The notes under the pieces were generated by a model, which searched no databases, was not told where the DNA came from, and was given only the letters and a program-made list of their open reading frames with translations. From contig CACXPH010000024.1 of assembly GCA_902769535.1 (NCBI GenBank), positions 1 through 37,322 on the forward strand: DNA of 37,322 bases, given 5' to 3'. This document shows positions 7,511-36,970 of this stretch, piece by piece. The translations under genes were made by a program, and so were the position numbers. Source of the stretch: an uncultured Bacteroidales bacterium (GTDB taxonomy: Bacteria; Bacteroidota; Bacteroidia; Bacteroidales; Paludibacteraceae). Position 1 is the first letter of the stretch, and the number at the start of each line of letters is the position of its first letter.

Positions 7511-7531
7511 GGTGTATGGTGTATGGTGTAA
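7511..7531. repeat. 7-bp tandem repeat, three units
   Basis: GGTGTAT, GGTGTAT, GGTGTAA in direct succession, on the distal side of the rpoC terminator. It is one of six period-7 arrays in the window. Confidence 0.85.
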
Positions 7532-7559
7532 AAGAAAAAGGAGCCCGAAAGCTCCTTTT
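7531..7559 (-). terminator. Terminator of the rpoBC operon
   Basis: A 9-bp stem (7536-7544 with 7551-7559) with loop CCGAAA (plus strand); in the minus-strand sense the stem AAAAGGAGC/GCUCCUUUU is followed by UCUUUU. It lies 40 nt beyond the rpoC stop and closes the long operon. Confidence 0.88.
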
Positions 7560-7562
7560 CCT

Positions 7563-7590
7563 ATAACCGATCACCGATAACCGGTAACCG
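7563..7590. repeat. 7-bp tandem repeat, four units, in the rpoC 3' UTR
   Basis: ATAACCG, ATCACCG, ATAACCG, GTAACCG, exactly in register, between the rpoC stop (7599) and its terminator. Confidence 0.85.
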
Positions 7591-7598
7591 TTACATAT

Positions 7599-10500
7599 TT
7601 ACTCTTCGTCACCGTTCAAAGCAGCCTCGGCAGCTTCGCGGGCAGCCTGGATAGCGGCGTACTCTTCGGCGTTGTGTACCGTGATCTTCGAGAAGTCACG
7701 CATACCCGTTCCGGCAGGAATGAGGTTACCGCAGATAACGTTCTCCTTCATTCCCTCGAGGTAGTCCACCTTACCGCGGATAGCAGCCTCGTTGAGAACC
7801 TTCGTGGTCTCCTGGAAGGATGCAGCGGACATAAAGGACTTCGTACCCAGCGCAGCGCGTGTGATACCTTGCAGGATCTGCTTAGCCGTAGCGCATTCAG
7901 CGTCACGAGCAACCACCAGCTTCTTATCACGACGACGGAGGCTCGAGTTCTCATCGTGCAGACGACGAGCGGTAACGATCTGACCTTCGCGGAGTACCTC
8001 GGAGTCACCGGCATTGGTAACTACCTTACGACCCCAGATACGATCGTTCTCCTCGAGGAAGTCGAGCTTGTCGACAATATCACCCTCCAAGAAACGTGTA
8101 TCACCCGGTTCGAGAATCTCTACCTTACGCATCATCTGACGAACGATGATCTCGAAGTGCTTATCGTTGATCTCCACACCTTGCAGACGGTAAACAGCCT
8201 GTGCCTCGTTAACGATGTAGTTCTGTACCGCTGTCGGACCTTGGATAGCCAAGATATCATCCGGCGTGATTGCACCGTCAGAGAGCGGAGCTCCGGCACG
8301 TACGAAGTCACCTTCCTGAACCAAGATCTGCTTGGTCAACGGGATCAGATAAGCCTTCTGCTCACCGAGTTTCGAAGTAATGAACAGCTCACGGTTACCA
8401 CGCTTGATCTTACCGTAGGTAATCTCACCGTCGATCTCAGCCACGATAGCCGGGTTAGACGGGTTACGAGCCTCGAAGAGCTCCGTGATACGCGGAAGAC
8501 CGGAGGTGATATCACCACCGCTGTTCTTCGCACGAGCGGTCGAGAAGAGGGAGTCACCGATCTTCACGGTGTCACCATCCTTAACGTCGAGGTTTGCCTT
8601 AACAGGCAAGTTGTACGAACGGAGGATGTTACCCGCCTTGTCAATCACGTGTGCTTGCGGCAGTTTGGTCTTGTCTTTCGACTCGGTGATATATACCTCT
8701 TTCTTACCGGTCTGCTCATCGATCTCGGTCTTGCAGGTCACACCTTCGATTACATCCTCGAAGCGGATCTTACCGTCTTGCTCGATCAGCAAAGGAATCT
8801 TATAGGAATCCCACTCGCAGACGCGGGTACCCTTCGGGTATTTCTCGCCCGGAGTAACGAACAGTTTCGCCGAATACGGGATATCGAAGGTAGCCAGTAC
8901 AACACCTGTCTTCTCGTCCTTCAACGAGAGGGTGTTCTTACGGCTGACTGCGATAACGTCACCGGCAGCGGTAGTGATCGTACGGAGATCTTCGATCTCG
9001 ACAATACCGTCACGGGACAGGTCGTAGGTGCTCTGAGCAGCCGAACCACCGGCCAAACCACCGGAGTGGAAGGTACGGAGGGTCAACTGAGTACCCGGCT
9101 CACCGATAGCCTGTGCAGCGATGACACCGACAGCCTCACCCTTCTGAACCATCTTACGGGAAGCGAGGTTACGTCCGTAACACTTCGCGCAGACACCGTG
9201 CTTGGATTCGCAGGTGAGTACCGAGCGGATAACTACCTCTTCGATACCTGCAGCCTCGATAGCCTCGCATTGTGCCTCGCGGATCTCTTCGCCGGCAGCC
9301 ACAATGAGGTTACCGTCGTTATCCAGTACATCGTGTACAGAGACACGACCGAGGATACGCTGGCTCAACGAAGCTACTACACGGTCGCCATCCTTAACGG
9401 CGCGTGTAGCCAAACCACGGAGCGTACCGCAGTCTTCCTCGTTGATGATCACGTCGTGCGATACATCGACCAGACGGCGGGTCAGATAACCGGCATCGGC
9501 TGTCTTCAAAGCGGTATCGGCAAGACCCTTACGGGCACCGTGGGTCGAGATGAAGTACTCGAGCACCGACATACCTTCTTTGAAGTTCGCAAGAATCGGG
9601 TTCTCAATATCCGTACGGGTATCGGTCGAACCGGCTTTCAACGGCTTACCCATGATACCACGGATACCTGCCAACTGCTTGATCTGGTCTGCATTACCAC
9701 GGGCACCGGAGTCCATCATCATGTACACGGAGTTGAAGCCTTCGTCAGCCTCCTCCATGTGCTTCATGACGATCTTCTTCAGTTTCTCATCGATCTCTTT
9801 CCAGGTATCGACGGTCTTACGATAACGCTCGTCGTCCGTGATAAGACCCATCGTATAGTTCATATAGAGGTCATCCACGATGGCGTTACCTTGTGCGATC
9901 TGGTCTTTGCGCTCCTCAGGAATGAGGATATCATTCAAGTTGAAGGACAAACCACCCTTGAAAGCACGGTAGTAACCGAGGTCCTTGATATCATCGAGGA
10001 ACTTCGCAGCACGAGCCACACCGCAGGTCTTGATGACCTTGGTGATGATGGCCTTGACTGCTCCTTTCTTCATCAGCACATTCTGGTAACCGATCTCTTC
10101 CGGCACATACTGGTTGACGATGACACGACCCGGAGTGGTCTGATAGATCTGACCGTTGACACGTACGTTCACTTTCGAGTGTACGTCCACGCGACCTTCG
10201 TTGAGTGCGATGATAGCCTCTTCCTCCGAGTAGAAGGTAAGACCTTCACCCTTCGCACCCGCACGCTCCTTAGTAATATAATACAGACCAAGGATCATAT
10301 CTTGCGAAGGTACGGTAATCGGGTTACCGTTCGCCGGGTCGAGGATATTATGGGATCCGAGCATGAGGAGCTGTGCCTCGACGATAGCCTCGTTGCTCAA
10401 CGGCAAGTGAACCGCCATCTGGTCACCATCGAAGTCGGCGTTGAAGCCGGCACAGGACAGCGGGTGCAGCTGGATAGCCTTACCCTCGATCATCTTCGGC

Positions 10501-11885
10501 TGGAAAGCCAAGATACCGTGGCGGTGCAGTGTCGGAGCACGGTTCAGCAGAACCGGGTGTCCTTCCATCACATGCTCCAGAATCTCATAGATAACCGGTT
10601 CGCGGCGATCGATGATCTTCTTAGCCGATTTAACCGTCTTCACCGTTCCGCGCTCGATGAGCTTACGGATGATGAACGGCTTATAGAGTTCAGCCGCCAT
10701 CTCTTTGGGCAGACCGCACTCGTGCATCTTCAGTTCCGGACCTACGACGATAACCGAACGCGCGGAGTAGTCCACACGTTTACCGAGCAGGTTCTGACGG
10801 AAACGTCCTTGTTTACCCTTGAGGGAGTCAGAGAGCGATTTCAACGGACGGTTAGCCTCGGACTTCATTGCCGTCGTCTTACGGCTGTTATCGAAGAGCG
10901 AGTCAACGGCCTCCTGAAGCATACGCTTCTCGTTACGCAGGATGACATCCGGCGCCTTGATCTCCATCAATCGTTTGAGACGGTTGTTACGGATGATCAC
11001 ACGGCGGTAGAGGTCGTTGAGGTCAGACGTAGCAAAACGTCCACCATCCAGCGGAACCAACGGACGCAACTCCGGCGGGGTTACAGGCACAGCCTGCAGA
11101 ATCATCCACTCCGGACGGTTCTTGCCCTTGGAAGCGCGGAAAGCCTCTACTACCTGCAGACGCTTGAGAGCCTCTTGACGGCGTTGCGCCGAAGTAGCCT
11201 TGTCTGCCGTAGCACGCAGTTCGTAACTCAGTTCATCGAGGTCGATAGCGCAGAGCAGGTCGTAAACGGCCTCAGCACCCATCTTCACGATGACTTTGTT
11301 CGGATCGGTATCCTCGAGCAGATCGTTGTCCTCCGGGAGGATAGCCATTACCTGCTGGTACTGATCCTCATCAAGCAACATCTTGTCCTCGATAGGAAGA
11401 CGGTTCTTATCGTTCTCGTGCTTCTCGCCGATCTCCTGACCGAGGAGTGCGCCGGCACGTACGACGAGGTATTTCTCGTAATAGATGACGGTCTCCAGTT
11501 TCTTGGTCGGGATACCGAGCAGCGCTGCCATCTTGGACGGCAACGAACGGAGATACCAGATATGCGCTACCGGAACGACGAGTTTGATGTGACCCATACG
11601 CTCACGACGCACTTTCTTCTCGGTTACCTCTACGCCGCAACGCTCGCAGACGATACCTTTATAACGAATACGTTTGTATTTACCGCAGTGGCACTCATAA
11701 TCCTTGGTCGGACCAAAAATGCGCTCACAGAACAAACCGTCACGTTCAGGTTTGTAGGTACGATAGTTAATCGTTTCCGGTTTGAGCACCTCACCCGAGG
11801 AGATCTGCATGATCTCGTCCGGGGAAGCCAGACCAATAGAGATCTTGGTGAAACCGGTTTTCTTATTTTCTTGTTTAAAAGCCAT
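7599..11885 (-). CDS. rpoC: DNA-directed RNA polymerase subunit beta'
   Basis: 1,428 aa, a normal length for Bacteroidetes. Beta' forms half of the active-site cleft of RNA polymerase and binds the catalytic magnesium. Visible landmarks: the N-terminal zinc site ECHCGKYK...CERCG; the rudder/lid region; the absolutely conserved metal-binding NADFDGD; the bridge-helix/trigger-loop region with [16 protein letters not shown]; and the second zinc site [13 protein letters not shown]. The start [12 protein letters not shown] lies 14 nt after the rpoB stop, so the two are co-translated from one mRNA. A stem-loop terminator follows. An open frame of 1,445 codons runs antisense across the whole gene, but it is a codon-usage artefact. 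Confidence 0.99.
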
Positions 11886-11899
11886 ATTCTAGTCCTCCA

Positions 11900-14800
11900 T
11901 TATTCCATGTTAATACTGAGTGCCAGACCTTGTAACTCGTGCAGGAGCACGTTGAGCGACTCGGGCAGACCCGGCGTCGGGAACGGCTCACCTTTGACGA
12001 TAGCCTCGTAGGTACGTGCACGACCGGTGACGTCATCGGACTTGATGGTAAGGATCTCCTGGAGCACGTGCGCAGCACCGTGTGCCTCGAGTGCCCAAAC
12101 CTCCATCTCACCGAAACGCTGACCACCGAACTGTGCCTTACCACCCAACGGCTGCTGGGTAATCAAGCTGTACGGACCAATCGAACGTGCGTGCATCTTA
12201 TCATCGACCATGTGACCGAGTTTCATGAAGTAGGTCACACCGACCGTTGCCATCTGGTCAAACGGTTCACCCGTCTCACCGTCGTACAACTGGGTCTTAC
12301 CGCCACGCGGCAGGCCGGCCTTGTCGGTCCACTCGTCGAGTTGCTCCATCGTACATCCGTCGAAGATAGGCGTCGAGAATTTAACACCTAACTCCTGACC
12401 AGCCCATCCGAGGACAGCCTCGAAGATCTGACCGATGTTCATACGGGAAGGCACACCCATCGGGTTTAGCACGATATCAACCGGCGTACCGTCTGCGAGG
12501 AACGGCATATCCTCTACGCGGACGATCTTGGATACGATACCCTTGTTACCGTGACGACCGGCCATCTTATCACCCACGCGGATCTTACGACGCTTAGCCA
12601 CGTAAACCTTCGCCATCTGGATGATACCGTTCGGCAGTTCATCGCCGATAGTCAAGTTAAATTTCTCACGCTTGAGCAGCGCGTCCATCTCTTTGAACTT
12701 AACGATATAGTTCATGATACACTGAGCTACCAACTCGTTCTTGTGCTCGTCAGCGGTCCAACCCTCGAGGAGAACCGAGAAGTAATCGATCTCATTGAGG
12801 CGCTCCTTGGTGAAGTGCTGGCCTTTACTGATGAGTTCGGTACCGAGGATATCCTTGACGGATACCGCCTGACGACCGTTGAGCAGGTTGTAGAGCTTGT
12901 CGATGAGCAGGTCGCGCAATGCTTCTGCTTGCTCGCGGAACTTGAGATCCATCTTCTGCATGGTCTCTTTGTCCTCCATCTTCTGCTTGCGGTCTTTGGT
13001 AGCACGCGTATAGAGTTTCTTATCGATGATGACACCGTCGAGCGACGGGCTGCACTTCAACGAAGCGTCCTTCACGTCACCGGCTTTGTCACCGAAGATA
13101 GCCTTGAGCAGTTTCTCCTCCGGACTCGGATCGGTCTCGCCTTTCGGCGTGATCTTACCGATGAGGATATCACCCGGTTGTACATACGCACCGATGCGAA
13201 TGATACCGTTCTCGTCGAGGTCTTTGGTTGCCTCTTCGGACACATTCGGGATATCGGCGGTGAACTCCTCCATACCGCGCTTGGTGTCACGTACCTCGAG
13301 CAACTGTTCAACAACGTGAACAGAGGTGTACATATCGTCACGAACGATGCGCTCGCTGAGCACGATAGCATCCTCGTAGTTATAACCTTTCCAAGGAATA
13401 TACGCTACCTTGAGGTTCTTACCGAGTGCCAGTTCGCCGCCTTGGGTTGCATAACCCTCGGTGAGCATCTGACCTTTCTCTACCTTGTCGCCCTTGCGAA
13501 CGAGCGGATGGAGGTCGATGGTCGTGTTCTGGTTCGTTTTCTCGAACTTCGGCAGTTTATACTCTTTCTCGGCCGGCTCGAAGGAGATGAACTCCTCCTC
13601 TTCCGAGCGCTCGTACTTGATACGGATCGTATCGGCATCCACATAAGTCACCAGACCGTCTGCCTCCGCCACTATCTGCGTACGGCTGTCGGTAACGAGT
13701 TGCTCCTCAATACCGGTACCTACGATAGGTGCTTCGGATGTAATCAAAGGCACGGCCTGGCGCATCATGTTCGATCCCATGAGGGCACGGTGAGCATCAT
13801 CGTGCTCGAGGAACGGAATGAGCGCTGCAGCTACGGAAGCGATCTGACACGGAGCCACGTCCATGAGGTTCACCTCACTCGGCGCTACGACAGGGAAGTC
13901 GGCACCCAGACGAGTCTTAACCTTCGTGCGGATGAAGCTACCGTCCTCGCGGAGCGGTGCGTTACCCTGCGCAACGACTTGCTTCTCCTCGTCTTCTGCA
14001 GAGAGGTAGATCACGTGATCGTTGTCCAGATCGACCATGCTGTTCTCTACCTTGCGGTACGGCGTCTCAATGAAGCCGAGGTCGTTGATCTTCGCGTAGA
14101 TACACATCGAAGAGATAAGACCGATGTTCGGACCTTCCGGCGTCTCGATAGGACAGAGACGACCGTAGTGCGTATAGTGTACGTCACGTACCTCGAATCC
14201 GGCACGGTCACGACTCAGACCACCAGGACCGAGGGCTGACATACGACGCTTGTGCGTGATCTCAGCCAGCGGGTTCTGCTGATCCATGAACTGGCTCAGT
14301 GCGTTGGTTCCGAAATAGGAGTTGATGATAGACGAGATCGACTTCGCGTTGATCAGGTCGGTCGGCGTGAAGACCTCGTTGTCGCGAACGTTCATACGCT
14401 CACGAACGGTGCGGGCCATACGAGCCAGACCGATACCGAACTGGTTGAAGAGTTGCTCACCTACGGTACGTACACGACGGTTGGAGAGGTGGTCGATATC
14501 ATCCACCTCGGCGTTGCTGTTGATGAGCATGACGAGGTACTTGATGATCTCGATGATATCCTCTTTGGTCAGGACACGTACATCCTCCGGAATGGAGGTG
14601 TTGAGCTTACGGTTGATACGATAACGTCCTACCTCACCCAGGTCATAACGCTTCTGGGAGAAGAACAGGTTCTGGATCATCTCACGTGCCGTAGCGTCAT
14701 CAGCCGGCTCAGCGTTACGTAACTGACGGTAGATATAGAGGACAGCCTCTTTCTCCGTCTTAGCCGGGTCTTTCTGCAAGGTGTTGAAGATGATGGAGAA

Positions 14801-15712: not shown

Positions 15713-15874
15713 TATTTTATATGGTTGAAATTGGTTTGACAGAATTAAACTGCTGATAATAAATAATTTAGCTCTAAATCGATGGGTTTGTATTTTATAT
15801 TATTTTAACTTTCACCCGCGCGCTATTATCAGATTTTTCAGTTATTTAATCATTCTGTTCTATTGAGCAGAAAA

Positions 15875-15910
15875 GGTTTAGACTCCCATTTTGATCTGGG
15901 AATCTAAACC
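15875..15910 (-). promoter_or_regulatory. Long hairpin between rplL and rpoB (attenuator or processing site)
   Basis: GGTTTAGA-C-TCCCA (875-888 of 15 kb) pairs with TGGGA-A-TCTAAACC (897-910), with an 8-nt loop and one internal mismatch. In the RNA sense it is followed by UUUUCU, only a weak U-tract. This fits partial termination or RNA processing in the rplJL-rpoBC leader, a site known in E. coli for an attenuator and an RNase III cut. Confidence 0.7.
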
Positions 15911-15914
15911 TATT

Positions 15915-16375: not shown

Positions 16376-16410
16376 GCCATTAGCTTTTCGCCTCTAGCCA
16401 TTCGCCTTCT
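16376..16410. repeat. 7-bp tandem repeat, five degenerate units, rplJ-rplL junction
   Basis: GCCATTA, GCTTTTC, GCCTCTA, GCCATTC, GCCTTCT in exact 7-bp register, running into the rplJ stop codon (16410-16412). The units are more diverged from each other than in the other arrays. Confidence 0.65.
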
Positions 16411-18203: not shown

Positions 18204-18755
18204 CTACTCTTTTTCTACCTGGTTGTAGCCCAGCTCCAACGGAGTCTGGCGATCAAAGATCGTAACAACCACTTTGAGTTTATGCTTCTCTGCGCTTACC
18301 TCCTGTACGGTTCCCTTGAAGCCGTTGAACGGACCGTCGCAAACCTTAACACTCTCACCCACGAGGAAGGTGATCTCACTTGCTGCACGCGTTTCACTTT
18401 CACTGGCGATACCAACAAGTTTGTTTACTTCCTCTTGAGATACGGGTTCGGGTTTAACCGTAGTCTTTCCACCGCTCAAGAAACCCAATACATTCGGGAT
18501 GTTACGCAACAGAGGGAAGCTCTCGTCGCACAAATAGCACTCTACCAGCAGATAGCCCGGGAGCAGATTACGCTCTTTCTCCGTGCGCTTGCCGTTTTTA
18601 AGAGTGACTACTTTTTCCCGCGGGATGAGCACCTGTGACACATACTCACGGAACAGAGAAGAGGAGACGAGTGCATTGTTGATGTACTCCTCTACCTTAT
18701 TCTCCTTACCGGAGATAGCGCGCAACACATACCATTGTTTTTTGTTCTCAGCCAT
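18204..18755 (-). CDS. nusG: Transcription termination/antitermination factor NusG
   Basis: 183 aa. NusG binds the beta' clamp helices and links RNA polymerase to Rho or to ribosomal protein S10. The NGN domain starts WYVLRAISGKENKVEEYI and includes LLPGYLLVECYL. The C-terminal KOW domain starts near VGESVKVCDGPFNGFKGTV. It is slightly longer than the shortest family members because of a loop between NGN and KOW, normal for Bacteroidetes. It follows secE after 50 nt that hold a 7-bp tandem repeat. Confidence 0.98.
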   Translation of the reverse strand: MAENKKQWYVLRAISGKENKVEEYINNALVSSSLFREYVSQVLIPREKVVTLKNGKRTEKERNLLPGYLLVECYLCDESFPLLRNIPNVLGFLSGGKTTVKPEPVSQEEVNKLVGIASESETRAASEITFLVGESVKVCDGPFNGFKGTVQEVSAEKHKLKVVVTIFDRQTPLELGYNQVEKE

Positions 18756-18764
18756 CTTAATCTA

Positions 18765-18796
18765 AAATCTTAAATCTTAAATTTGAAATCTTAAAT
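18765..18796. repeat. 7-bp tandem repeat in the secE-nusG gap
   Basis: AAATCTT, AAATCTT, AAATTTG, AAATCTT, AAAT in exact register. The array fills most of the 50-nt gap between the secE stop (18806) and the nusG start (18755). Confidence 0.85.
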
Positions 18797-22462: not shown

Positions 22463-22469
22463 AGTGCTA

Positions 22470-22500
22470 TTTATGATTTATGATTTCAAATTTATGATTT
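22470..22500. repeat. 7-bp tandem repeat between the two kinase genes
   Basis: TTTATGA, TTTATGA, TTTCAAA, TTTATGA, TTT in exact register. The array includes the stop codon of the upstream kinase (22492-22494), so changes in copy number could alter the last residues or the gap. Confidence 0.85.
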
Positions 22501-23130
22501 ACTCCAATTGTTTTCCGAGAAGAGGCCGAACAACTCGGCATCGACCTTGTTGACAACGGCGCGAAAGTCAGCGGGGTTATTCTCAAAATCCATACCGTCG
22601 GACTCGATAACCAGCACACGACCTTCGTACTTGTTGAAGATAAAATCTTCGTATTTCTCGTTGAGGCCTTTGAGGTAATCGATCTGCATAGCCTGCTCAT
22701 AGTCCCGTCCGCGCTTCTGGATCTGGGCGATGAGTGCCGGCACAGACTTACGAAGATAGATCATCATATCCGGCATCTTCATCTGTGATTTCATGAGATC
22801 AAACAGTTCCATGAAGGTCTCGTAGTCACGCTGACTGAGGTCTCCGCGTTCGTAGTTGTTCTTGACAAAGACATAGACGCCTTCGAAGATCGAACGGTCT
22901 TGCACGATGGTATGCGATGATTTCTGGACCGCCAGCATATCTTTGAAACGCTCCTTAAGGAAATAGGTCTCGAGGCAGAAGGCCCAGCGATTGATGTCAC
23001 TGTAGTAGTCCTCCAGGTACGGATTGAAGCTCACGCTCTCAAAGCGCGGCTCCCAACCGTAATACTTCGCTAACATCTTCGTTAGCGTCGTCTTTCCGGC
23101 TCCGATATTTCCCGCTATCGCGATGTACAT
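22492..23130 (-). CDS. Deoxynucleoside kinase (dAK/dGK family), paralogue 2
   Basis: 212 aa. P-loop AGNIGAGKTTL, FNPYLEDYYSD, DRS motif in IVQDRSIFEG, and QIQKRGRDYEQ. It is the close paralogue of the following kinase, with which it probably forms a salvage pair. It differs in the classical DRS (rather than DRT) motif and in Ala for Cys in the P-loop. Its ATG shares a base with the stop of the secreted GH13 gene upstream (TAATG), so its translation is likely coupled to that gene. The last codons fall inside a 7-bp repeat array. Confidence 0.93.
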   Translation of the reverse strand: MYIAIAGNIGAGKTTLTKMLAKYYGWEPRFESVSFNPYLEDYYSDINRWAFCLETYFLKERFKDMLAVQKSSHTIVQDRSIFEGVYVFVKNNYERGDLSQRDYETFMELFDLMKSQMKMPDMMIYLRKSVPALIAQIQKRGRDYEQAMQIDYLKGLNEKYEDFIFNKYEGRVLVIESDGMDFENNPADFRAVVNKVDAELFGLFSENNWSKS

Positions 23131-30204: not shown

Positions 30205-33200
30205 TATGCTTATTGTCGATTACTTGTTCTACGCTCTCTTCCCAGATACCGTTGCAATCATGATCCACTACGGCACGACCGCAATCGGCATTCCAGAGGT
30301 AGCACGTGTTCTCATCTACGAAGATATCCTGGCTCTGCGGCTTCTTGTCACCTTCGGTGAAGATGATATAGATCTCCTTGATATCATCCGGCATGGTATG
30401 TACGTACCACTTACCTTCTGCATCCATCGTGGTCCACTTCATACCCGGCCACTTAGCGCTCTTGCCGTCCAGCGAGTATGGCGTATCTTTGTACTTGGTG
30501 CCCACTTTCACACGCGTGAACGCGTATAGATATAGGGTCTCCCACTCTTCCGGCTTGATGAACTTAACCGTGATGGCTCCTTGTTGCGGAGCCTTATAGG
30601 TGTACGTCTCGCTATAGGTCTGCGTGCGCTCTTTATCCAGCGCCGCATAGGCCTTAACGGTCGTGGTCTTATTCACCGTGAAGGTTACTTCGCCTTGCGC
30701 TGTCTGCGATGCCGTCGTCGGTTCCGTTCCGTCCGTCGTGTAGTAGATCATCGCATTCTCCGCGCCTATTGTACGGATCGTCACTTGTTGACCTTCCGTC
30801 TGGTCATAGAAGAAACCGCTCTCCGGAGTCACTGCCAGATCGAAGGCAGGATTCAACTCGGTCTCGCAATCCAGCAACAATTCCTCCGAACTGTCCGTCT
30901 CTTTGCCTTCGCGCCAACCGTAACATACATCGTAGTCAGCCACCAGGTCGTTCGAACGAACATTCACACCACCACAGTCATCACCGGAGTTGAGGCAGAA
31001 ATGTACGCTATCCATCGAAGCGTCAAACTCATAGCTAAACCAACCTTCGACATCCTGATAGATACGCTGTCCCGGGTAAGCTCCCATGATATTCTCCGAA
31101 GTCGGTTTGCCTTGCTCGTCCACACCGGGTTGCCAAGCATAGACATAGACCTTGCTCCATTCAGCCGGTTTGTTGAAGCGCACACGAATACCACGTGCCA
31201 GCGGCTCACGATAGGTGTACGTATATTCCTGCACTTTCGAAGATGCTGTACCGCATACCGCCATCACCTTCAACGTAGTCGTTTGCGTGAAAGTGAGCGT
31301 ATCGGTATAGACAGCCGACTCGGTCGTCGGATCTGTTCCGTCCGTCGTGTAGTAGATCACAGCCGTTCCGCTTCCGCCTACTGCCTGCATTCCCACCTTA
31401 ATACCTGCAATCGAGTCCTCAAACGTAGTACTCGGTGTCACAATCAGACCCGGCGCTACATAAGCCGACGCATTCGTCCAGATAGCATAGCCGTTGCCGC
31501 TTGCCACTTTGCGATAACCCGCGAACGTGCCGTTCGCCTTATTACCCAGACACAGAATCAAGTTACCGTTCTTACCGTGGATAGTAGCCTTGTAACCACC
31601 CTGCTCTGCCTCTTCATCCGATACCGCACTCTCCGAGTGAACACCTGCCAAGTGACGGGCATTGATCATCGGCTTGATATCTTCTTTGTATTTCTGCCAG
31701 TGGGGATAGAACACGCATGGTACACCCGGCATACTCAGCAGGAACGCATTCGCCTGCATCAAACGGTCTTTCAATGCCGGTTTCATCGAGTTACCGTTAC
31801 CGCCGAACTCCTGACCGTTATCGCGCAAGAACCAGTCGTGGCTGTCCACAAACGTGATCGCATATTTCGCATAGCCGCGTCCTAACAGACCGCTACCCTT
31901 GCACTTGCTATAATCATAACCGGCAATACCGTCAAACGCACTGTATTTCGTCTGGAAATCCAACGCCATCACGTTACGGTTCGCCTGCTCGATACCGTGG
32001 ATGATCTCATCATTACCGCTCCAGTACTCCATAAACGCGATATACGGCTGCGAGTTCTTATTGTAGTTATCCATGTGCCAGTTATTGAAACCGTCACCCT
32101 TGTCGTAACGCCAACCGTCGTACTTCATCACGTCTTTCATCCATTTCAGGTAAGCGATCATCATCTCTTGCACATAGACCTTGTCATGACTCCAGTCACG
32201 CGCTGCGTCCCAGTTAGCACCGTCATCCGGTGAACCTGTCGCGGTGCCGAAACACTCACCTGCCTCTTTCTTATTGGCGGGATCGTTCATCTCGTCCGTC
32301 GAGCATATATACGAACCATCCGGTTCAAACCGACCGTACTCACCGAAGTCCTGTACAGCGAAGTCGCACCAGCTGGCCATCGCCTCTACGTGATTGATCA
32401 CGATGTCAGCTACCACTTTCGTACCGCTGTTATGGAACGCCGATATCAGCGCCTCCAACTCAGCACGGCTACCCCAATCACTGTTCTGGTTGCTGTATTG
32501 TTTGGGGTGATAACCCGTTCCGCTCGCGTAGGCACTAGGCGGCAACCAGATCAGGTCGAAGTATGCACCGATCTCGCCGGCTTGACCCAACAAGGTCTTC
32601 CAACGCGTATCGCCGTAGATCTCCGTTCCTGCATGATCTGTATCCACCGAGTAGGAATCGAAATAGAAACCCTGCATCAGCACGTCACCGCACTCACTCG
32701 GCACTGCGCTGTGAGGAGGTTCTATCGTACAACCCTTACACGAGATATACACCTCATCATTATCCATGATGAACTTGATATAGAAATCATACGTACCATC
32801 CTCGGCTACTTTGTACTTGCCGTCCGCTATCGGGAACTCATAACTCGTGTTCGCATACTTGGTAATCACCCAAGCGGCATTGTTACAACTGTCGTAGACC
32901 TGGAGCAACTGACCTTTCTGCAACTGCAGACCGGTGATCATATACTCCAACCACTCCGTCTGCGCAGTGTTCTTCACTCCCGGTACGTACACGCCATCTA
33001 CCAACAAACCGAATGACTCACACGGCTCAGTCGGCGTATAAGGCTCACCCGAACCGCAGTCATTGTTACCGTTGCCAATGTACAACTGATCCTGAGCGTA
33101 CTTCAGCTTGATGTAGAAGTGGAAACAACCGGTATTAGTCGTCGTGTAATAACCGGCTGCCTCATTGCGCGAGAAGCCTGCAACCGAGTACTGATCCAGA

Positions 33201-33415
33201 GCTACCGTCCAAGTATCACCGGTCGACTTGTTGCACAACGCAAAATGATCGCCGCTGTTCAACTGCACCTTCGCCAAGTACTGGGTGAAACCATCGTTCT
33301 CATCCACTTTCGTTCCAGCGAAATACACACTGTCATTCACCAAAATTCCATAACTCTGGGCGAACATTCCCACTGCCCAGAATACCGTCAAAAGAAGCGT
33401 TAAAGACTTTTTCAT
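30119..33415 (-). CDS. Large secreted GH13 alpha-amylase with N-terminal modules and two CBM26-like modules
   Basis: 1,098 aa from the ATG at 33415 (signal MKKSLTLLLTVFWAVGMFAQ). Two copies of an N-terminal module: about 21-117 (SYGILVNDSVYFAG ... FHFYIKLKYAQDQLYIG) and about 130-235 (FGLLVDGVYVPG ... YDFYIKFIMDNDEVYIS). GH13 barrel about 250-640: ADIVINHVE, Asp nucleophile in DGWRYDKGD (about 437), Glu in FMEYWSG (about 463), Asp in FVDSHDWF (about 524). Then two chitobiase-C-like domains with YYTTDGTDPTT and YYTTDGTEPTT (about 657-733, 858-935), each followed by a CBM26-like module (about 740-830, about 945-1043) with FNKPAEW/FIKPEEW, YAYPGQ-like and WPGMKW blocks. It ends GVMYDIFGRKL, the shared tail. 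First gene of the starch operon, with its promoter at 33452-33483. Its last 86 bp also encode the next gene's signal peptide. Confidence 0.92.
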   Translation of the reverse strand: MKKSLTLLLTVFWAVGMFAQSYGILVNDSVYFAGTKVDENDGFTQYLAKVQLNSGDHFALCNKSTGDTWTVALDQYSVAGFSRNEAAGYYTTTNTGCFHFYIKLKYAQDQLYIGNGNNDCGSGEPYTPTEPCESFGLLVDGVYVPGVKNTAQTEWLEYMITGLQLQKGQLLQVYDSCNNAAWVITKYANTSYEFPIADGKYKVAEDGTYDFYIKFIMDNDEVYISCKGCTIEPPHSAVPSECGDVLMQGFYFDSYSVDTDHAGTEIYGDTRWKTLLGQAGEIGAYFDLIWLPPSAYASGTGYHPKQYSNQNSDWGSRAELEALISAFHNSGTKVVADIVINHVEAMASWCDFAVQDFGEYGRFEPDGSYICSTDEMNDPANKKEAGECFGTATGSPDDGANWDAARDWSHDKVYVQEMMIAYLKWMKDVMKYDGWRYDKGDGFNNWHMDNYNKNSQPYIAFMEYWSGNDEIIHGIEQANRNVMALDFQTKYSAFDGIAGYDYSKCKGSGLLGRGYAKYAITFVDSHDWFLRDNGQEFGGNGNSMKPALKDRLMQANAFLLSMPGVPCVFYPHWQKYKEDIKPMINARHLAGVHSESAVSDEEAEQGGYKATIHGKNGNLILCLGNKANGTFAGYRKVASGNGYAIWTNASAYVAPGLIVTPSTTFEDSIAGIKVGMQAVGGSGTAVIYYTTDGTDPTTESAVYTDTLTFTQTTTLKVMAVCGTASSKVQEYTYTYREPLARGIRVRFNKPAEWSKVYVYAWQPGVDEQGKPTSENIMGAYPGQRIYQDVEGWFSYEFDASMDSVHFCLNSGDDCGGVNVRSNDLVADYDVCYGWREGKETDSSEELLLDCETELNPAFDLAVTPESGFFYDQTEGQQVTIRTIGAENAMIYYTTDGTEPTTASQTAQGEVTFTVNKTTTVKAYAALDKERTQTYSETYTYKAPQQGAITVKFIKPEEWETLYLYAFTRVKVGTKYKDTPYSLDGKSAKWPGMKWTTMDAEGKWYVHTMPDDIKEIYIIFTEGDKKPQSQDIFVDENTCYLWNADCGRAVVDHDCNGIWEESVEQVIDNKHNETYKFIIDGRLVIVHNGVMYDIFGRKL

Positions 33416-33451
33416 TGTATTAGTGTTTGTGATTTTTTTCAAAATTGGCCA

Positions 33452-33483
33452 CAAAATTACTGCTTTTTTATTACTTATGCAAG
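33452..33483 (-). promoter_or_regulatory. Promoter of the starch operon
   Basis: Minus strand: CTTG (33480-33483), a 20-nt spacer ending AAAAAAGCAG, TAATTTTG (33452-33459). It drives the four genes from 33415 to the terminator at 25664-25700. I see no operator or riboswitch in the 36-nt leader. Confidence 0.82.
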
Positions 33484-33500
33484 CGCGCGTGGATTTTTTT

Positions 33501-34169
33501 TTACATTTTTTGTATCTTTTTAATGATTACCACGCCTTTTTCGACACCAAATGCAACATTCCAACCTGCATAATCCAACTTATACTCCCGATCCGGATCG
33601 TCCTGATAACCCGGCCGCGGATCCTGCGATAAAATATATTCTATATCTCGCCTAATTTCATCATTAAGCGAAGCGTCACCATTGAGCAACGCTGTTGCGC
33701 TCATTTCAACATTCAGTTTATACCCCTTCGTCTCTTCCGCAAACCCGTTCCGCGCATCCTCGTGACTGTCACTGAAACTCAGGTACGGCTTAATGTCGTA
33801 TATCGGTGTTCCATCGAGCACATCCGCACCACTCACAATCAGGTCGCCGTCCTCCACACGCACCAACCGTACACTGCTCAATCCCAATGGATTAGGCCGA
33901 AACGGACTACGTGTTGCAAACACTCCCATCCGCTTGTTACCTCCCAACCGCGGAGGCCTAACCGTCGGACTCCAAGAGTCCACTTCGCTAAAGCCCCAGA
34001 TGAGCCACAGATGGCTATACCCTTCTATCCCGCGAAGCGCTTCTGCTACCTTGTATTCCGGTTCAAAAACAATCCGCGTTTCTATCGGACTCTCTTCCCG
34101 ACTCTGGCGAGGTATCCCGAACTTATCCGTGTGCCCGTTACGAGCATATGCAATCACTTTTAACTCCAT
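33501..34169 (-). CDS. trmO: tRNA (t6A37) N6-methyltransferase TrmO family
   Basis: 222 aa. TrmO (formerly YaeB/TsaA, UPF0066) methylates N6-threonylcarbamoyladenosine at position 37 of threonine tRNA using S-adenosylmethionine. The beta-barrel fold is recognisable by FGIPRQSREE, IEGYSHLWLIWGFSE, RPPRLGGNKRMGVFATRSPFR and PNPLGLSSVRL, with GTPIYDIKPY further on. The C-terminal extension (EYILSQDPRPGYQDD) is the usual end domain. Own promoter at 34190-34221, divergent from tRNA-Phe. No clear terminator between its stop and the starch promoter. No gene in the window seems to be its functional partner, although two tRNA-Thr genes are present. Confidence 0.93.
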   Translation of the reverse strand: MELKVIAYARNGHTDKFGIPRQSREESPIETRIVFEPEYKVAEALRGIEGYSHLWLIWGFSEVDSWSPTVRPPRLGGNKRMGVFATRSPFRPNPLGLSSVRLVRVEDGDLIVSGADVLDGTPIYDIKPYLSFSDSHEDARNGFAEETKGYKLNVEMSATALLNGDASLNDEIRRDIEYILSQDPRPGYQDDPDREYKLDYAGWNVAFGVEKGVVIIKKIQKM

Positions 34170-34189
34170 AAATAGTCAAAATTTGAGTG

Positions 34190-34221
34190 CAAAGATAACA
34201 AAAAATCACGGAAAATGCAAG
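34190..34221 (-). promoter_or_regulatory. trmO promoter
   Basis: Minus strand: CTTG (34218-34221), a 20-nt spacer, TATCTTTG (34190-34197). The leader is short, about 14 nt. Confidence 0.78.
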
Positions 34222-34246
34222 TTTTTGCAAAAAAAACACGAAAAAA

Positions 34247-34278
34247 TTTGGTCAATTCAAAAAAAAGCAGTACTTTTG
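34247..34278 (+). promoter_or_regulatory. tRNA-Phe promoter
   Basis: Plus strand: TTTG (34247-34250), a 20-nt spacer, TACTTTTG (34271-34278). From the -33 box to -7 it differs from the tRNA-cluster promoter (20893-20924) by a single base in the -7 box. It is back to back with the trmO promoter. Confidence 0.85.
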
Positions 34279-34285
34279 CACCCGC

Positions 34286-34405
34286 TTTCGTCAGGAGCGT
34301 CATTTTTTTGCCCTCTTAGGCGGAAGCACAGGTGTTACAAGGTAAGCAATTTTATTTGCCCCTTCCGGCGGAAGCCGGTTTCCCCGATTAACGGGGACAC
34401 CTCCG
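34286..34405 (+). other. Structured leader upstream of tRNA-Phe (possible small RNA)
   Basis: About 120 nt separate the expected start from the tRNA. They contain two perfect hairpins: CCGGC-GGAA-GCCGG (34365-34378) and TCCCCG-ATTAA-CGGGGA (34381-34397). A 20-nt imperfect direct repeat also lies here (34308-34327 and 34356-34375, 16 of 20 identical, sharing GGCGGAAGC). There is no convincing open frame. The segment may only be processed away from the tRNA precursor, or it may be a stable RNA. Confidence 0.45.
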
Positions 34406-34478
34406 GGTGCCATAGCTCAGTTGGTAGAGCAAAGGACTGAAAATCCTTGTGTCCCTAGTTCGATTCTCGGTGGCACCA
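34406..34478 (+). tRNA. tRNA-Phe (anticodon GAA)
   Basis: Acceptor GGTGCCA/TGGCACC with discriminator A; anticodon GAA at 34439-34441 in a loop closed by AAGGA/TCCTT; D-arm GCTCAGTTGGTAGAGC. The T stem CCTAG/CTCGG has one unpaired T-C position (51-63), unusual for a tRNA; CTAGG would restore pairing. CCA is not encoded. It is the only complete plus-strand gene in the window. Confidence 0.96.
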
Positions 34479-34485
34479 CGAAAAA
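34459..34485 (+). repeat. 27-bp direct repeat, copy 1 (3' end of tRNA-Phe)
   Basis: It covers the T-loop, T-stem 3' strand and acceptor 3' strand of tRNA-Phe plus CGAAAAA beyond it. It is identical to 34576-34602. It is the kind of segment used as an attachment site by integrative elements. Confidence 0.88.
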
Positions 34486-34509
34486 GTCTCTCATTCGAGG
34501 GACTTTTTT
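34484..34509 (+). terminator. Terminator directly after tRNA-Phe
   Basis: A 9-bp stem (34484-34492 with 34497-34505; one G-U pair) with loop ATTC, ending in TTTTTT (34504-34509). Confidence 0.88.
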
Positions 34510-34575
34510 GTGCCAATAACGGAATCTCACTAGAGTTCTCCGCCGCTACGCTCTGTCGATTATTGCTATGCAATC

Positions 34576-34602
34576 TTCGATTCTCGGTGGCACCACGAAA
34601 AA
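34576..34602 (+). repeat. 27-bp direct repeat, copy 2 (tRNA-Phe fragment)
   Basis: Exact copy of the tRNA-Phe 3' end, 117 bp downstream. GTGCCA at 34510-34515 could be the decayed 5' acceptor strand of the same fragment, but no anticodon arm or D arm is recognisable, so it is not a functional tRNA. Confidence 0.88.
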
Positions 34603-34625
34603 CGACCTGATGAGGGTCGTTTTTT
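34598..34625. terminator. Bidirectional terminator between tRNA-Phe and the DUF2130 gene
   Basis: AAAAACGACC / GGTCGTTTTT stem around a 7-nt loop, with T6 on the plus side (34620-34625) and A5 on the other (34598-34602). It begins 4 nt beyond the stop of the convergent DUF2130 gene and can stop both transcripts. Confidence 0.85.
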
Positions 34626-34628
34626 GTT

Positions 34629-35774
34629 TTATTTGGCTTTATCAAACATCGCCTTCATGGTCGGGTTGCCGTAGGTAAGGCGTTTCACGGTGACATCCTG
34701 CAGTTTCTTGTCGGCTTGATTGAGGTTATCGCCTGATTTGACGAGGTTCTCACGCACTTTCGTGAGGTGCGCTATCGTCTTGTCTATCTCATCGATAGCG
34801 TCCGCAAAACGCTCGTTAGCAAGGCGTACATTACGCGCGAAAGCATCCTTGAAGGTCGTCAGTTTCTCTTCGAAATTGGTCACATCCACCTGTTGCGCCT
34901 TCACCAACGCCAACTCGCGTTTGGCATCCAGACTCTTCTTGCTCGTCTGGCATAGTAAGGTGATGAGCGGAATGAAGAACTGCGGACGGATGACGTACAT
35001 CTTCTCATAGCGGTGACTCATATCGACGATACCGCCGTTGTATAGTTCGCTCTCCGGCTCGAGCATCGACACCAGCACCGCGTACTCGCAGTTTTTCTTG
35101 CGGCGGTCGCTGTCGAGTTTCGCCAGAAAGTCCTCGTTCTTATGCTTGGTAGCCGTCTCGTCGTTCTCGTTCTTCATCTCGAACATGATGCTCACGTACT
35201 CCACGCCGTCCTCGCTTTTGTCCCTAAACACGAAATCACCTTTCGTACCTTCTACCACCTCGTTGTCCTTCTCGAAATAGGCGTTCGGCATCAGCGGTCG
35301 CAACAACTGGTTGAAGAGCGTCGAGCAGTGGATCTCTAAGGTCTCACCCACCATCTTCGTGCTCATGCGCAGCTTCATCTCTTTGTAGTACGCCACCTGC
35401 TCCTGCGCCGCTTTGAGCTGCTCTTCCCATTTGGTCTTTTCCTGCGCCAACTCCTGCTGCACTTTCATATACGACTCCGTCGCCTTCTGTCTCACCTCCG
35501 CTACGGCCAGCTGCTTTGCTTGCTCAGCCTGCTGGATCTGCGCCTGCAAGGACTGAATCTGACTCTGCAACTGCGATTCCTTCGCCTGCGACTGGCTTCT
35601 GACTTCTGAAAGCTGAACGCTGACAGCCATCTTTTGATTCTGTTCCAACTCATGGATACGACGACTCAACTCCTGCTCAAACTCAGCATTCTTCACTTGG
35701 TTAAGTAACAAAGCGTAATCCGCCTCGTCCACCGTGAACGTACTCCCGCATTTCGGACATTTTAACTCTTTCAT
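34629..35774 (-). CDS. DUF2130-family protein with zinc ribbon, coiled coil and possible nuclease-like core
   Basis: 381 aa from the ATG at 35774 (MKELKCPKCGSTFTVDEADY); the frame opens 16 codons earlier, but that part overlaps the promoter. N-terminal half zinc ribbon CPKCG (a second Cys pair is not seen). Residues about 40-140 form a Gln/Glu/Ala-rich coiled coil. The C-terminal DUF2130 core follows (LEIHCSTLFNQLLRPLMPNA). Within it, GDFVFRD...IMFEMKNE has the spacing of a D...ExK pair, as in PD-(D/E)xK nucleases, and FLAKLDSDRRKKNCEYAVLVSML follows. The function is unknown; a link to RmuC-like DNA repair proteins is only a guess from architecture. Monocistronic: own promoter 35796-35827, terminator 34598-34625. 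Confidence 0.85.
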   Translation of the reverse strand: MKELKCPKCGSTFTVDEADYALLLNQVKNAEFEQELSRRIHELEQNQKMAVSVQLSEVRSQSQAKESQLQSQIQSLQAQIQQAEQAKQLAVAEVRQKATESYMKVQQELAQEKTKWEEQLKAAQEQVAYYKEMKLRMSTKMVGETLEIHCSTLFNQLLRPLMPNAYFEKDNEVVEGTKGDFVFRDKSEDGVEYVSIMFEMKNENDETATKHKNEDFLAKLDSDRRKKNCEYAVLVSMLEPESELYNGGIVDMSHRYEKMYVIRPQFFIPLITLLCQTSKKSLDAKRELALVKAQQVDVTNFEEKLTTFKDAFARNVRLANERFADAIDEIDKTIAHLTKVRENLVKSGDNLNQADKKLQDVTVKRLTYGNPTMKAMFDKAK

Positions 35775-35795
35775 TCTCAAAAACTTTTGCGGCTG

Positions 35796-35827
35796 CAAAA
35801 GTACAAAAAAAATTGCAAACACACAAA
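35796..35827 (-). promoter_or_regulatory. Promoter of the DUF2130 gene
   Basis: Minus strand: TTTG (35824-35827), a 20-nt spacer, TACTTTTG (35796-35803). It sits immediately after the stop of the DUF1294 gene. The -33 box lacks the GCATA extension seen elsewhere. Confidence 0.75.
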
Positions 35828-35828
35828 T

Positions 35829-36119
35829 TTATTTGCAATTTTCTAACCATATTCCTACTGCTGCCGCTATTTGCATGAGTAATATCAACGGCAAACCGTA
35901 TTTGAACTTCTTGTGCTGCGTCTTGTGGTGCCAGGCTTTCATGCCCAGCCACGCACCGACACTTCCACCCAGAACCGCCATCCAGATAAGCGCAGCTTCC
36001 GACACACGCCACTTGGAACGCTTCGCTTTCCATTTATCCACGCCATACATAAAGAACGTTATTCCATTGATGGCGGCAAGATAGATGAGGACAATATGTA
36101 TCCAGTTTATTTGTGGCAT
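35829..36119 (-). CDS. DUF1294-family small membrane protein
   Basis: 96 aa from the ATG at 36119 (MPQINWIHIVLIYLAAINGI); an upstream extension of the frame overlaps the transporter and is ignored. Two to three hydrophobic helices, and the family signature FxxYGxDKxxAKRxxWRxxE (here FFMYGVDKWKAKRSKWRVSE), then LGGSVGAWLGMKAWHHKTQH and KKFKYGLPLILLMQ. Its biochemical role is unknown. It overlaps the transporter's 3' end by 13 bp, so the two are translationally coupled. Confidence 0.9.
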   Translation of the reverse strand: MPQINWIHIVLIYLAAINGITFFMYGVDKWKAKRSKWRVSEAALIWMAVLGGSVGAWLGMKAWHHKTQHKKFKYGLPLILLMQIAAAVGIWLENCK

Positions 36120-36970
36120 ATTTTCGTTATTCCCACGTACGCCAGCAGAATAAGATTCATCATCAAAGCATAGATGATGGCCGGAATAGCGATAATCTCG
36201 TTGTTGAAAATCAACGGACTGCACGCTATTGTGATGGCTTGAGCGGCATTCTGCATACCAATCTCAATGACCAGTGTACGACGCTCTTTGGTCGTTAAGC
36301 GAAATAACCATGCCATCAATGCACCGCACGAAGTAGTAGCGAGGATAAGTATGGACATCGTCAGTCCGAGGCTACCGAACTCTTCCACGATAGTCTGTTT
36401 GTGTTGAACGAAGAAAACAGTCACTAACAGCACTAATGCCGGCATCGCGATACGTTTGAGGACGTTATGAATTTTCTCTGCCACGAGGGGTTTGAAGAAG
36501 TTGACGATAAAACCGATAGATATTGGCACGACCATCAGCACAATGTTCTGTACAAGCAATTTGCCAATAGGCAACTGTATACTGACATCTGAAAACTGGA
36601 CACTTTTTGTCACCCACACCATGATAAGCGGCAAGGTAAAGAGCGTGATGATACTGCTGCACGCCGTCAGTGTAACAGACAGCGCTATGTCACCCTTCGC
36701 CAGCATGGAGAACACATTGCTGGAACTACCACCCGGACTGCAGGCCACAAGCATGATGCCGATGATAAATAAAGGTGAAAGGTGAGAGGTGAAAGGTGAA
36801 AGGATAATCCCCCACGCTATCAACGGCAGCAGAATGATTTGTCCCACTAAACCGATAAGAACCGGCTTTGGACGCTCTGCTATCAGTTTGAAGTCCGCCG
36901 GCTTGAGCGCCAAGCCCAAGTCGAACATCAGTAGCGTCAGTATAGGCAGTACGATAAAAATGGTATTCAT
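36107..36970 (-). CDS. BASS/SBF-family (bile acid:sodium symporter-like) transporter
   Basis: 287 aa, about nine to ten hydrophobic helices. Family blocks: LMFDLGLALKPADF at the start, ACSPGGSSSNVFSMLAKGD (the conserved PGGxxSN crossing region), ALSVTLTACSS and, near the end, IEIGMQNAAQAITIA (the second substrate/sodium motif, usually ExGxQN). The family moves organic anions with sodium: bile acids, pantoate, keto-acids, sulfonates. The substrate here is not readable. In the loop after the second helix, the residues LSPFTSHLSPLF are encoded by a five-unit 7-bp tandem repeat (36772-36806). Own promoter at 37023-37054. Confidence 0.9.
   Translation of the reverse strand: MNTIFIVLPILTLLMFDLGLALKPADFKLIAERPKPVLIGLVGQIILLPLIAWGIILSPFTSHLSPLFIIGIMLVACSPGGSSSNVFSMLAKGDIALSVTLTACSSIITLFTLPLIMVWVTKSVQFSDVSIQLPIGKLLVQNIVLMVVPISIGFIVNFFKPLVAEKIHNVLKRIAMPALVLLVTVFFVQHKQTIVEEFGSLGLTMSILILATTSCGALMAWLFRLTTKERRTLVIEIGMQNAAQAITIACSPLIFNNEIIAIPAIIYALMMNLILLAYVGITKICHK
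36772..36806. repeat. 7-bp tandem repeat inside the transporter gene
   Basis: AAGGTGA, AAGGTGA, GAGGTGA, AAGGTGA, AAGGATA in exact 7-bp register (plus strand). Since 7 is not a multiple of 3, gain or loss of one unit would shift the reading frame; only changes of three units keep it. Confidence 0.9.

What the first reader, a model, noticed from the sequence alone, without database searches (positions are those of the whole stretch)
7511..36806. Six heptanucleotide tandem arrays, each with its own 7-bp word
Arrays at 7511-7531 (GGTGTAT), 7563-7590 (ATAACCG), 16376-16410 (GCCATTA-like), 18765-18796 (AAATCTT), 22470-22500 (TTTATGA) and 36772-36806 (AAGGTGA) all have a period of exactly 7 bp. Their words are unrelated, so a single repeat family cannot explain them; the period itself is conserved. 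Five of six lie in the few dozen bases after a stop codon inside or at the end of an operon. This recalls the 7-bp short tandemly repeated sequences of cyanobacteria, where the function is also unclear. A mechanism that generates or keeps 7-bp periodicity is implied.
Basis: partly seen in the sequence, partly recalled or inferred. Interest (0 to 1): 0.82.

Follow-up and report, generated by a model that had tools for sequence, protein, structure and literature searches.

The report
Seven-base repeat patches rewriting bacterial genes
In a group of gut Bacteroidales, short arrays with a fixed 7-base step but ever-changing words sit at gene ends and even inside essential genes in frame, which simple repeat slippage does not readily explain.

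Summary
The observation largely holds and is genome-wide. In 437 kb of the window's genome (a Paludibacteraceae-like Bacteroidales MAG), period 7 gives 72 array segments; every period that is not a multiple of 7 gives 0-16. A fifth-order Markov null gives none at the stricter cut-off. The stop-codon link is real: 31 of the 41 arrays outside gene interiors lie at a stop codon, against 17% expected.

At one site, related species carry a different word, a different period, or native sequence. In HisS, two close pairs differ by a 45-50-nt array patch at random-level identity with no length change; the adjoining windows are 90-98% identical. Units look concerted. Arrays are patchy across the order; reverse transcriptase and Y-family polymerases do not track them. 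Best reading: lineage-restricted misaligned DNA copying with a 7-nt step, filtered by reading frame. Heptamer excess is known; in-frame rewriting looks new.

The parts
7509..7530 (-). array, word TACACCA (ATGGTGT on +), 3.1 units, just after the T-run of the likely terminator behind rpoC
   Evidence: TRF score 44, 100% matches; sequence
7563..7590 (-). array, word CGGTTAT/CGGTTAC (ATAACCG on +), 4 units, starting 8 nt after the rpoC stop codon
   Evidence: TRF score 42; distance 8 nt
16376..16410 (-). degenerate GGCNANN series between rplJ and rplL; weak as an array
   Evidence: not found by TRF; lag-7 score below cut-off; similar words at the same site in L072 (by eye)
18754..18796 (-). array, word AAGATTT (ATCTTAA on +), 6.3 units, filling the secE-nusG spacer
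   Evidence: TRF score 58; the lag-score segment 18759-18796 lies 9 nt after one gene and 3 nt before the next
22469..22501 (-). array, word AAATCAT, 4.7 units, between two co-directional genes and reaching into the end of the upstream one
   Evidence: TRF score 45; the lag-score segment 22469-22486 lies 5 and 6 nt from the neighbouring genes
   Evidence: TRF score 30; sequence; gene call
36771..36803 (-). array, word CACCTTT, 4.7 units, in frame inside a membrane transporter (peptide LSPFTSHLSPLF)
   Evidence: TRF score 59; translation; different words at the same site in relatives
36107..36970 (-). SBF/BASS-family transporter gene carrying the in-frame array
   Evidence: PF01758 E 7e-36 over residues 9-196
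203..251 (+). 11-bp array ACGATAAACAT, 4.5 units; another array class of this genome, not found inside genes in the stretches read
   Evidence: TRF score 70; 0 of 16 period-11 arrays in coding sequence

Best explanation
The arrays are not a regulatory element or a mobile repeat family. They are the footprint of a mis-copying process, active in some Bacteroidales lineages, in which DNA synthesis re-uses template about 7 nt away (slipped or misaligned synthesis, with or without return to register). In spacers it adds and removes whole 7-nt units. Inside existing arrays it copies one unit onto its neighbours, so that the word drifts while the period stays. Arrays appear and are replaced at permissive places. 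What we see is what selection spares: in genes, the stop-free, in-frame ones in tolerant loops; at gene ends, arrays that carry a sense stop codon, which therefore lies near their first unit. Shown: period lock in 437 kb, in-frame arrays in conserved genes, turnover of words and periods at one site, patches without length change, a whole-unit difference in one spacer, and higher unit similarity within than between arrays. Inferred: that misaligned synthesis is the cause. Not shown: which enzyme, why 7, and how a first patch overwrites native codons.
For: Period spectrum: 72 segments at 7 against 0-16 at every period from 1 to 30 that is not a multiple of 7, in 437 kb; G135 26 at 7 and at most 9 at other periods below 14 at cut-off 13. 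The word is read in three frames, as 7 is not a multiple of 3, so peptide selection cannot make the DNA period. Unit number differs by 14 nt at one spacer shared by G000 and G135 (L005:2962). Of the 15 array sites of G000 (of 72) that could be compared with the 368 kb of G135, 2 share a similar word, 7 hold a different repeat (4 of these 7 scored as arrays by eye), 6 have no array there (my reading of the printed alignments). HisS: 27 of 30 loci have no indel at the site, yet 10 carry a clear array and 2 a weak one; the pairs L222/L229 and L233/L240 fall to 24% and 29% identity inside the patch; the fewest changes of state on the HisS tree are 6, though 16 of its 27 inner branches are weak. 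Concerted units: transporter within-array identity 0.78 against 0.62 shuffled (18 loci), HisS 0.76 against 0.68 (11 loci); with rows chosen on units 1-2 only, units 3-4 0.71 against 0.56 (21 of 23 rows given).
Against: No lag-7 excess outside arrays, so the process does not act everywhere. Stepwise +7 growth inside an essential gene would pass through frameshifts, and a length-neutral first patch is not explained by ordinary slippage. Words are drawn from a shared, biased repertoire, more than local birth predicts. L219 and L233, mostly 75-85% alike along HisS, share a nearly identical patch, which fits transfer of the patch. Three HisS loci carry 27-42 nt more at this site, so length is not fixed there. 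The unit tests are confounded by common descent and, by choosing array-like rows. The RuvA, transporter and HisS sets are the 30 best matches to an array-bearing query, out of 115, 63 and 117 genomes with a match, so array frequencies in them are not population estimates. Two short spacers of the same operon show no arrays (rplK-rplA 0 of 60, rplA-rplJ 0 of 61 near loci).
Confidence: 0.45

Rival explanations
1. Patch transfer: arrays made once are moved as short patches, by allelic recombination between co-resident species or by microhomology template switching from another array, and overwrite the target.
For: HisS close pairs differ sharply in one 45-50-nt patch; L219 and L233 share the patch although mostly 75-85% alike elsewhere; repertoire of words shared between genomes ten times above chance, and somewhat more alike within G135 (0.028) than between genomes (0.018); the RuvA array peptide weakly matches other loci in relatives.
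Against: Words in G000 are no more alike within the genome (0.016) than between genomes (0.018); mosaic states of units at one site; G135 differs from G000 in repeat or lacks it at 13 of 15 compared sites.
Confidence: 0.25
2. Selected function: the arrays are kept as multi-frame stop signals or spacers. A 7-nt unit with a stop triplet gives stops in all three frames just after a gene.
For: 31 of 41 non-interior arrays at stop codons; among those 31 the sense strand has more stop triplets than the antisense in 20 and fewer in 5; 90% of words have a stop triplet on one strand against 53% of intergenic 7-mers.
Against: 31 of 72 arrays are inside genes, where that function would be absent; at the rplJ-rplL junction only 13 of 64 near loci score as arrays; 6 of 15 compared sites have no array in G135. 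An array with an in-frame stop near a gene end makes itself the stop, so the bias needs no function.
Confidence: 0.13
3. Phase-variation (contingency) repeats, as the 7-bp repeats of Haemophilus.
For: 7-bp units in frame could switch genes by +-7; one spacer differs by two units.
Against: Arrays lie in housekeeping genes (RuvA, HisS, RsgA, IspD), are short and imperfect, and the length at the site is constant in 27 of 30 HisS loci; in the transporter it varies (nine lengths among 30 loci).
Confidence: 0.06
4. Reverse-transcriptase-made or diversity-generating insertions.
For: Variable positions inside units; patches of new sequence. RVT_1 is found in 8 of 16 genomes taken as array-rich and 5 of 16 taken as array-poor.
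Against: No RVT_1 match in array-rich G135 (96% complete), G129 (100%), G338 (98%), G309 (99%), nor in G000 (85%).
Confidence: 0.03
5. Assembly or binning artefact.
For: The array-bearing genomes read here are MAGs, uncultured or unnamed.
Against: The same sites recur in assemblies from different studies and arrays inside genes keep open reading frames.
Confidence: 0.02

Closest known systems
Heptanucleotide long simple sequence repeats of prokaryotes (Mrazek and co-workers 2007; known to me here through PMC4679880 and PMC4692102, not read itself)
   Same: 7-nt units the most abundant class in most genomes of that survey; a link to the polymerase footprint was proposed there
   Different: As told in PMC4679880, units of multiples of three are the ones most likely in coding regions; here 7-nt arrays lie in frame in conserved genes, are imperfect, and can change word at constant length
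TAACTGA direct repeats of Beggiatoaceae, cyanobacteria and five Bacteroidetes (PMC4679880)
   Same: 7-nt tandem units, mostly two to six copies, spacers, mixed heptamers in some Bacteroidetes, absence in close relatives of some
   Different: One word, in the main species mostly just before start codons; here many words, at stops and inside genes
Cyanobacterial STRR heptamers (recalled)
   Same: 7-nt tandem units, function unclear
   Different: A few fixed words; no in-frame rewriting known to me
G-rich heptamer repeats of Xanthomonas and Nostoc (PMC4692102)
   Same: 7-nt period, close to the borders of reading frames, length and sequence variation between close relatives
   Different: One G-quadruplex-forming word type; here 7 of 72 words hold a GGG run
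Haemophilus heptanucleotide contingency repeats (PMC2651432)
   Same: 7-nt units, even a similar word (TGAAAGA)
   Different: Long tracts, mostly at surface genes, read as mediating phase variation
Rickettsia palindromic elements (recalled)
   Same: In-frame DNA insertions in conserved genes
   Different: A conserved palindromic sequence; here word-free, period-locked arrays

Membership tests
Heptanucleotide SSR excess (Mrazek class) | excess of period 7 over other periods | tested here: met
   72 at period 7 against 0-16 in 437 kb
Heptanucleotide SSR excess (Mrazek class) | non-triplet units kept out of coding regions | tested here: not met
   31 of 72 arrays mid-gene, 26 genes
TAACTGA direct repeats | the word TAACTGA | tested here: not met
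   consensus of 0 of 72 arrays
TAACTGA direct repeats | placement just before start codons | tested here: not met
   in co-directional spacers 20 of 28 arrays are nearer the stop; several fill the whole spacer and so also reach the next start
Cyanobacterial STRR | a few fixed heptamer words dispersed in the genome (recalled) | tested here: not met
   43 words in 72 arrays
G-quadruplex heptamers | GGG run in each unit | tested here: not met
   7 of 72 words hold GGG on either strand
Contingency (phase-variable) repeats | unit-number variation within a species | not testable with these tools
   one genome per species held
Rickettsia palindromic element-like insertions | in-frame insertion in conserved genes | tested here: met
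   RuvA site 1: 11 of 30 loci carry 24-48 nt inserts
Rickettsia palindromic element-like insertions | one conserved element sequence | tested here: not met
   six different words at one RuvA site
Structured RNA element | a common fold | tested here: not met
   five window stretches folded: two have no fold to speak of, two z -1.8 and -2.2, and the one at -5.95 holds the likely terminator
Retroelement (RT-made) diversity | a reverse transcriptase in array-rich genomes | tested here: not met
   no RVT_1 match in G129, G135, G338, G309

The most novel reading that the evidence does not exclude
A lineage-restricted DNA-copying process writes 7-nt-periodic patches over existing sequence, in essential genes too, at times without changing length, and then keeps rewriting them so that word and peptide change while period and frame stay. 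It would be a mutational route by which protein loops are replaced wholesale by DNA-level periodic sequence.
Probability: 0.3. Interest if true: 0.87.

Novelty: new variant of a known kind. Interest (0 to 1): 0.7.

Why it matters
Heptamer excess in bacteria was reported in 2007 with a guess at its cause (as told in PMC4679880). Here is a clade of dozens of close species in which presence, absence and word changes of arrays can be read at single sites, array-rich and array-poor genomes exist inside one genus, and arrays in reading frames separate mutation from selection. That makes the old question (why 7?) directly testable, and points to a source of protein change that ordinary alignments would call divergence.

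Tried and rejected
Genome-wide templated substitution at lag 7: rejected, no lag-7 excess after masking arrays. Intragenomic copying of a dominant word: not supported in G000, slightly favoured in G135; the six AACTATT arrays of G010 belong to a dispersed element, most with a shared flank, and are a different thing. Reverse transcriptase: RVT_1 in 8 of 16 array-rich and 5 of 16 array-poor genomes, absent from several near-complete array-rich ones. Y-family polymerase: in 13 of 16 array-rich and 11 of 16 array-poor genomes, absent from array-rich G135, G309 and G362. RNA structure: no common fold in five stretches. Phage-borne element: 22 viral stretches hold AAAGKTG three times, in a collection described as 2.9 million contigs; not followed further.

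Limits. Array-rich and array-poor rest on one word pattern, except G135 and G010, which were not in that search; period spectra were read for parts of 12 of the 32 genomes, and the five G369 stretches were taken from contigs with pattern hits. The interior and stop counts depend on my own simple gene caller, which missed one long gene in the window. Only 437 kb of the 1.887 Mb genome was read.

In those listings I saw no paper on in-frame heptamer rewriting; the library is partial. Papers seen: PMC4679880 abstract and two sections; PMC4692102 passages and discussion; PMC4060949 and PMC2651432 passages only; the rest as listings.

Corrections to my notes: a note counted 20 of 30 RuvA loci without an insert at site 1, recounting one search gives 19; notes called the period-8 words palindromic, but only 2 of 13 hold a 6-nt palindrome.
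Full report
WHAT THE WINDOW SHOWS. The window is one whole contig of a 1.887 Mb, 39-contig genome, 85% complete. Its nearest named relatives by ribosomal protein L10 are Paludibacteraceae or uncultured Bacteroidales MAGs, many from ruminants by their record titles. The array at 36771 lies inside a transporter of the SBF/BASS family, not after a stop codon.

EXCESS OF PERIOD 7. With an ungapped lag score (match +1, mismatch -2, at least 11) on 437,322 bases (20 stretches of 20 kb plus the window), period 7 gives 72 segments; every period from 1 to 30 that is not a multiple of 7 gives 0-16, the highest being 11 (16) and 8 (13). At the stricter cut-off of 13, period 7 gives 54 and the fifth-order Markov null none in eight replicates. 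A close relative, G135, gives 26 at period 7 in 368 kb. At the same cut-off the loci of 64 near relatives give 59 in 988 kb, 14 stretches of same-genus genomes 14 in 254 kb, five stretches of other families 2 in 85 kb (both in G034), and 16 far relatives 0 in 272 kb, mostly over the same ribosomal region. Lag-7 identity is not raised outside arrays: the arrays are discrete.

WORDS. There are 43 consensus words in the 72 arrays. They are not one family, but not random either: two arrays share a word with probability 0.016 inside this genome, 0.028 inside G135 and 0.018 between them, against 0.0015 for random intergenic 7-mers; 65% (G000) and 77% (G135) lack either G or C, against 40%; in G000 90% have a stop triplet on one strand, against 53%. 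In 170 words from G000, G135 and near loci, GTGA, GAAA, GGTG, AATC and TTAA are enriched and ATA, TAG and ATG depleted. Period-8 arrays often hold 4-nt palindromes (GATC, CTAG, TTAA, by eye), but only 2 of 13 hold a 6-nt one. Period-11 arrays were not found in coding sequence here (0 of 16).

PLACES. Using a simple gene caller of my own, 31 of 72 arrays are more than 60 nt inside a gene, in 26 genes; 31 start within -25 to +12 nt of a stop codon; 10 are elsewhere. Random placement outside gene interiors would put 16.9% at stops; 31 of 41 is far above that. At stops the sense strand has more stop triplets than the antisense in 20 arrays and fewer in 5; in the 31 interior arrays it is 9 and 14. 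I read this as follows: an array with a sense stop that arises near a gene end supplies the stop itself, so the stop sits at the array's 5' edge; one that lands mid-gene survives only if stop-free in frame. One example as I read it: at L016:4292 the array separates a stop and a start that overlap in G135, and its first unit holds the new stop.

INSIDE GENES. Ten of the 26 genes were given to Pfam and all ten matched: RuvA, HisS, RsgA, DAHP synthase/chorismate mutase, IspD, a pseudouridine synthase, an RNA methyltransferase, a DHH protein, the window's transporter and an MTS methyltransferase. In 8 of the 10 the main domain match runs across an array; in the two methyltransferases it does not. 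Even inside genes the period is 7: 20 mid-gene arrays at cut-off 13 against 2 for period 6, 3 for 8, 3 for 9 and 3 for 12. So the period is not chosen by the reading frame; it comes with the process.

ONE SITE, MANY WORDS. The gene sets are the 30 best matches among the same-genus genomes searched. RuvA: 11 of 30 loci carry an in-frame insert of 24-48 nt at one loop, with six different words; 19 have none. Transporter: the same loop in 30 loci holds TTTCACC, TTTCAAT, TTTCAAC, TTTCGAC, TTCAACA, TTACACC, TCAGC-type or TTACGAA repeats, or no clear one; within a subset length and register agree. Between rplJ and rplL, 13 of 64 near loci score as arrays, 9 of them period 8 and 2 period 7; between nusG and rplK 12 of 56 do, 11 of them period 7; rplK-rplA (0 of 60) and rplA-rplJ (0 of 61), both short spacers, none. 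G000 against G135: of 15 array sites that could be compared, 2 share a similar word (one differs by exactly two units), 7 hold a different repeat (4 scored, 3 by eye), 6 have no array.

LENGTH-NEUTRAL PATCHES. In HisS, 27 of 30 loci have no indel at the array site. Ten have a clear array and two a weak one, fifteen have native sequence, three have 27-42 nt of another repeat. The pairs L222/L229 and L233/L240 are 90% and 88.5% alike over HisS. In 60-column windows they are 0.93 and 0.98, and 0.93 and 0.90, on the two sides of the site and fall to 0.24 and 0.29 inside a patch of about 45-50 nt; elsewhere along the gene the lowest windows are 0.77 and 0.70. The tree without the patch needs at least six changes between array and native state, but 16 of its 27 inner branches are weak; two of the changes lie inside fully supported sister pairs. 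Which state is the newer in each pair was not tested. A KorA-like gene (name by recall) shows the same: array in G000, none in G135, no length change (L008:10965). L219 and L233, mostly 75-85% alike along HisS, share nearly the same patch, so exchange of patches between lineages is likely in part.

CONCERTED UNITS. Units are more alike within an array than when units are dealt among species at the same position: transporter 0.78 against 0.62 in 18 chosen loci, HisS 0.76 against 0.68 in 11. Choosing rows by units 1 and 2 only and testing units 3 and 4 gives 0.71 against 0.56 in 21 of the 23 loci given. Common descent inflates all three.

RANGE. A word-based pattern (ARAGKTK three times) is found in 64 of 295 genomes of the order, patchily: 51 hits in G338 and none in two others of its genus (G025, G240), 14 in G242 and none in G027 of the same genus. 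The control, the pattern read backwards, also hits in many of the same genomes, so the signal is of heptad arrays rather than of this word. Period spectra: G369 15 at 7 and 9 at 8 (contigs chosen for hits), G338 3 and 3, G325 9 at 7 and 8 at 9; array-poor G025/G240 and G027 none at 7. In the window's own genus the distant G010 lacks the class. RVT_1 and Y-family polymerases do not track it.

MECHANISM. I commit, at 0.45, to misaligned DNA synthesis with a preferred 7-nt step that expands, contracts and homogenises arrays, its products filtered by reading frame and stops. Steps shown: period lock, turnover, concerted units (with the caveat above), one whole-unit spacer change. Steps inferred: the copying error itself. 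The weak point is the first length-neutral patch in an essential gene; short-patch transfer is the main rival (0.25).

KNOWN. Heptamer excess in bacteria and the polymerase-footprint idea are known (told in PMC4679880 and PMC4692102). Heptamer repeats in some Bacteroidetes spacers are known (PMC4679880). Haemophilus has 7-bp tracts linked to phase variation (PMC2651432). What I did not see in my searches is period-7 rewriting of conserved genes in frame.

Noticed in passing
window 203-251 and L019:10760, L009:11199, L004:12494: 11-bp arrays (ACGATAAACAT, ATCACCTACTA and others) form a separate class: 0 of 16 in coding sequence, 5 of 16 in divergent spacers.
   Followed up: partly
L013:3218-3252, L006:13521-13549, L003:4222-4255: 8-bp arrays built on CGAGATCA/CGTGATCA also occur in frame in genes, as peptides like ITRSRDHEIT.
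   Followed up: partly
L260:13195, L268:19492, L265:2551: G010 has a dispersed sequence around TTAATAATTAATAGTTAATAT, in several copies followed by a like flank, seemingly a small mobile or REP-like repeat.
   Followed up: no
L232, L239, L236 (HisS site): Three HisS loci carry 27 or 42 nt more, built of what looks like a 16-bp repeat, at the very site where others carry 7-bp arrays.
   Followed up: partly
window 606-7400: A 2264-aa open reading frame directly behind rpoC, not identified.
   Followed up: no
L244:14213-14289: G135 has an 11-unit AATCACC array at the place of a GAGCGGT array in a G000 gene; whether the gene stays whole was not tested.
   Followed up: no
L301:1543-1626: G325 has two arrays in inverted orientation about 20 nt apart (AATGAAG and ATTCTTC), which could pair as a hairpin.
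   Followed up: no
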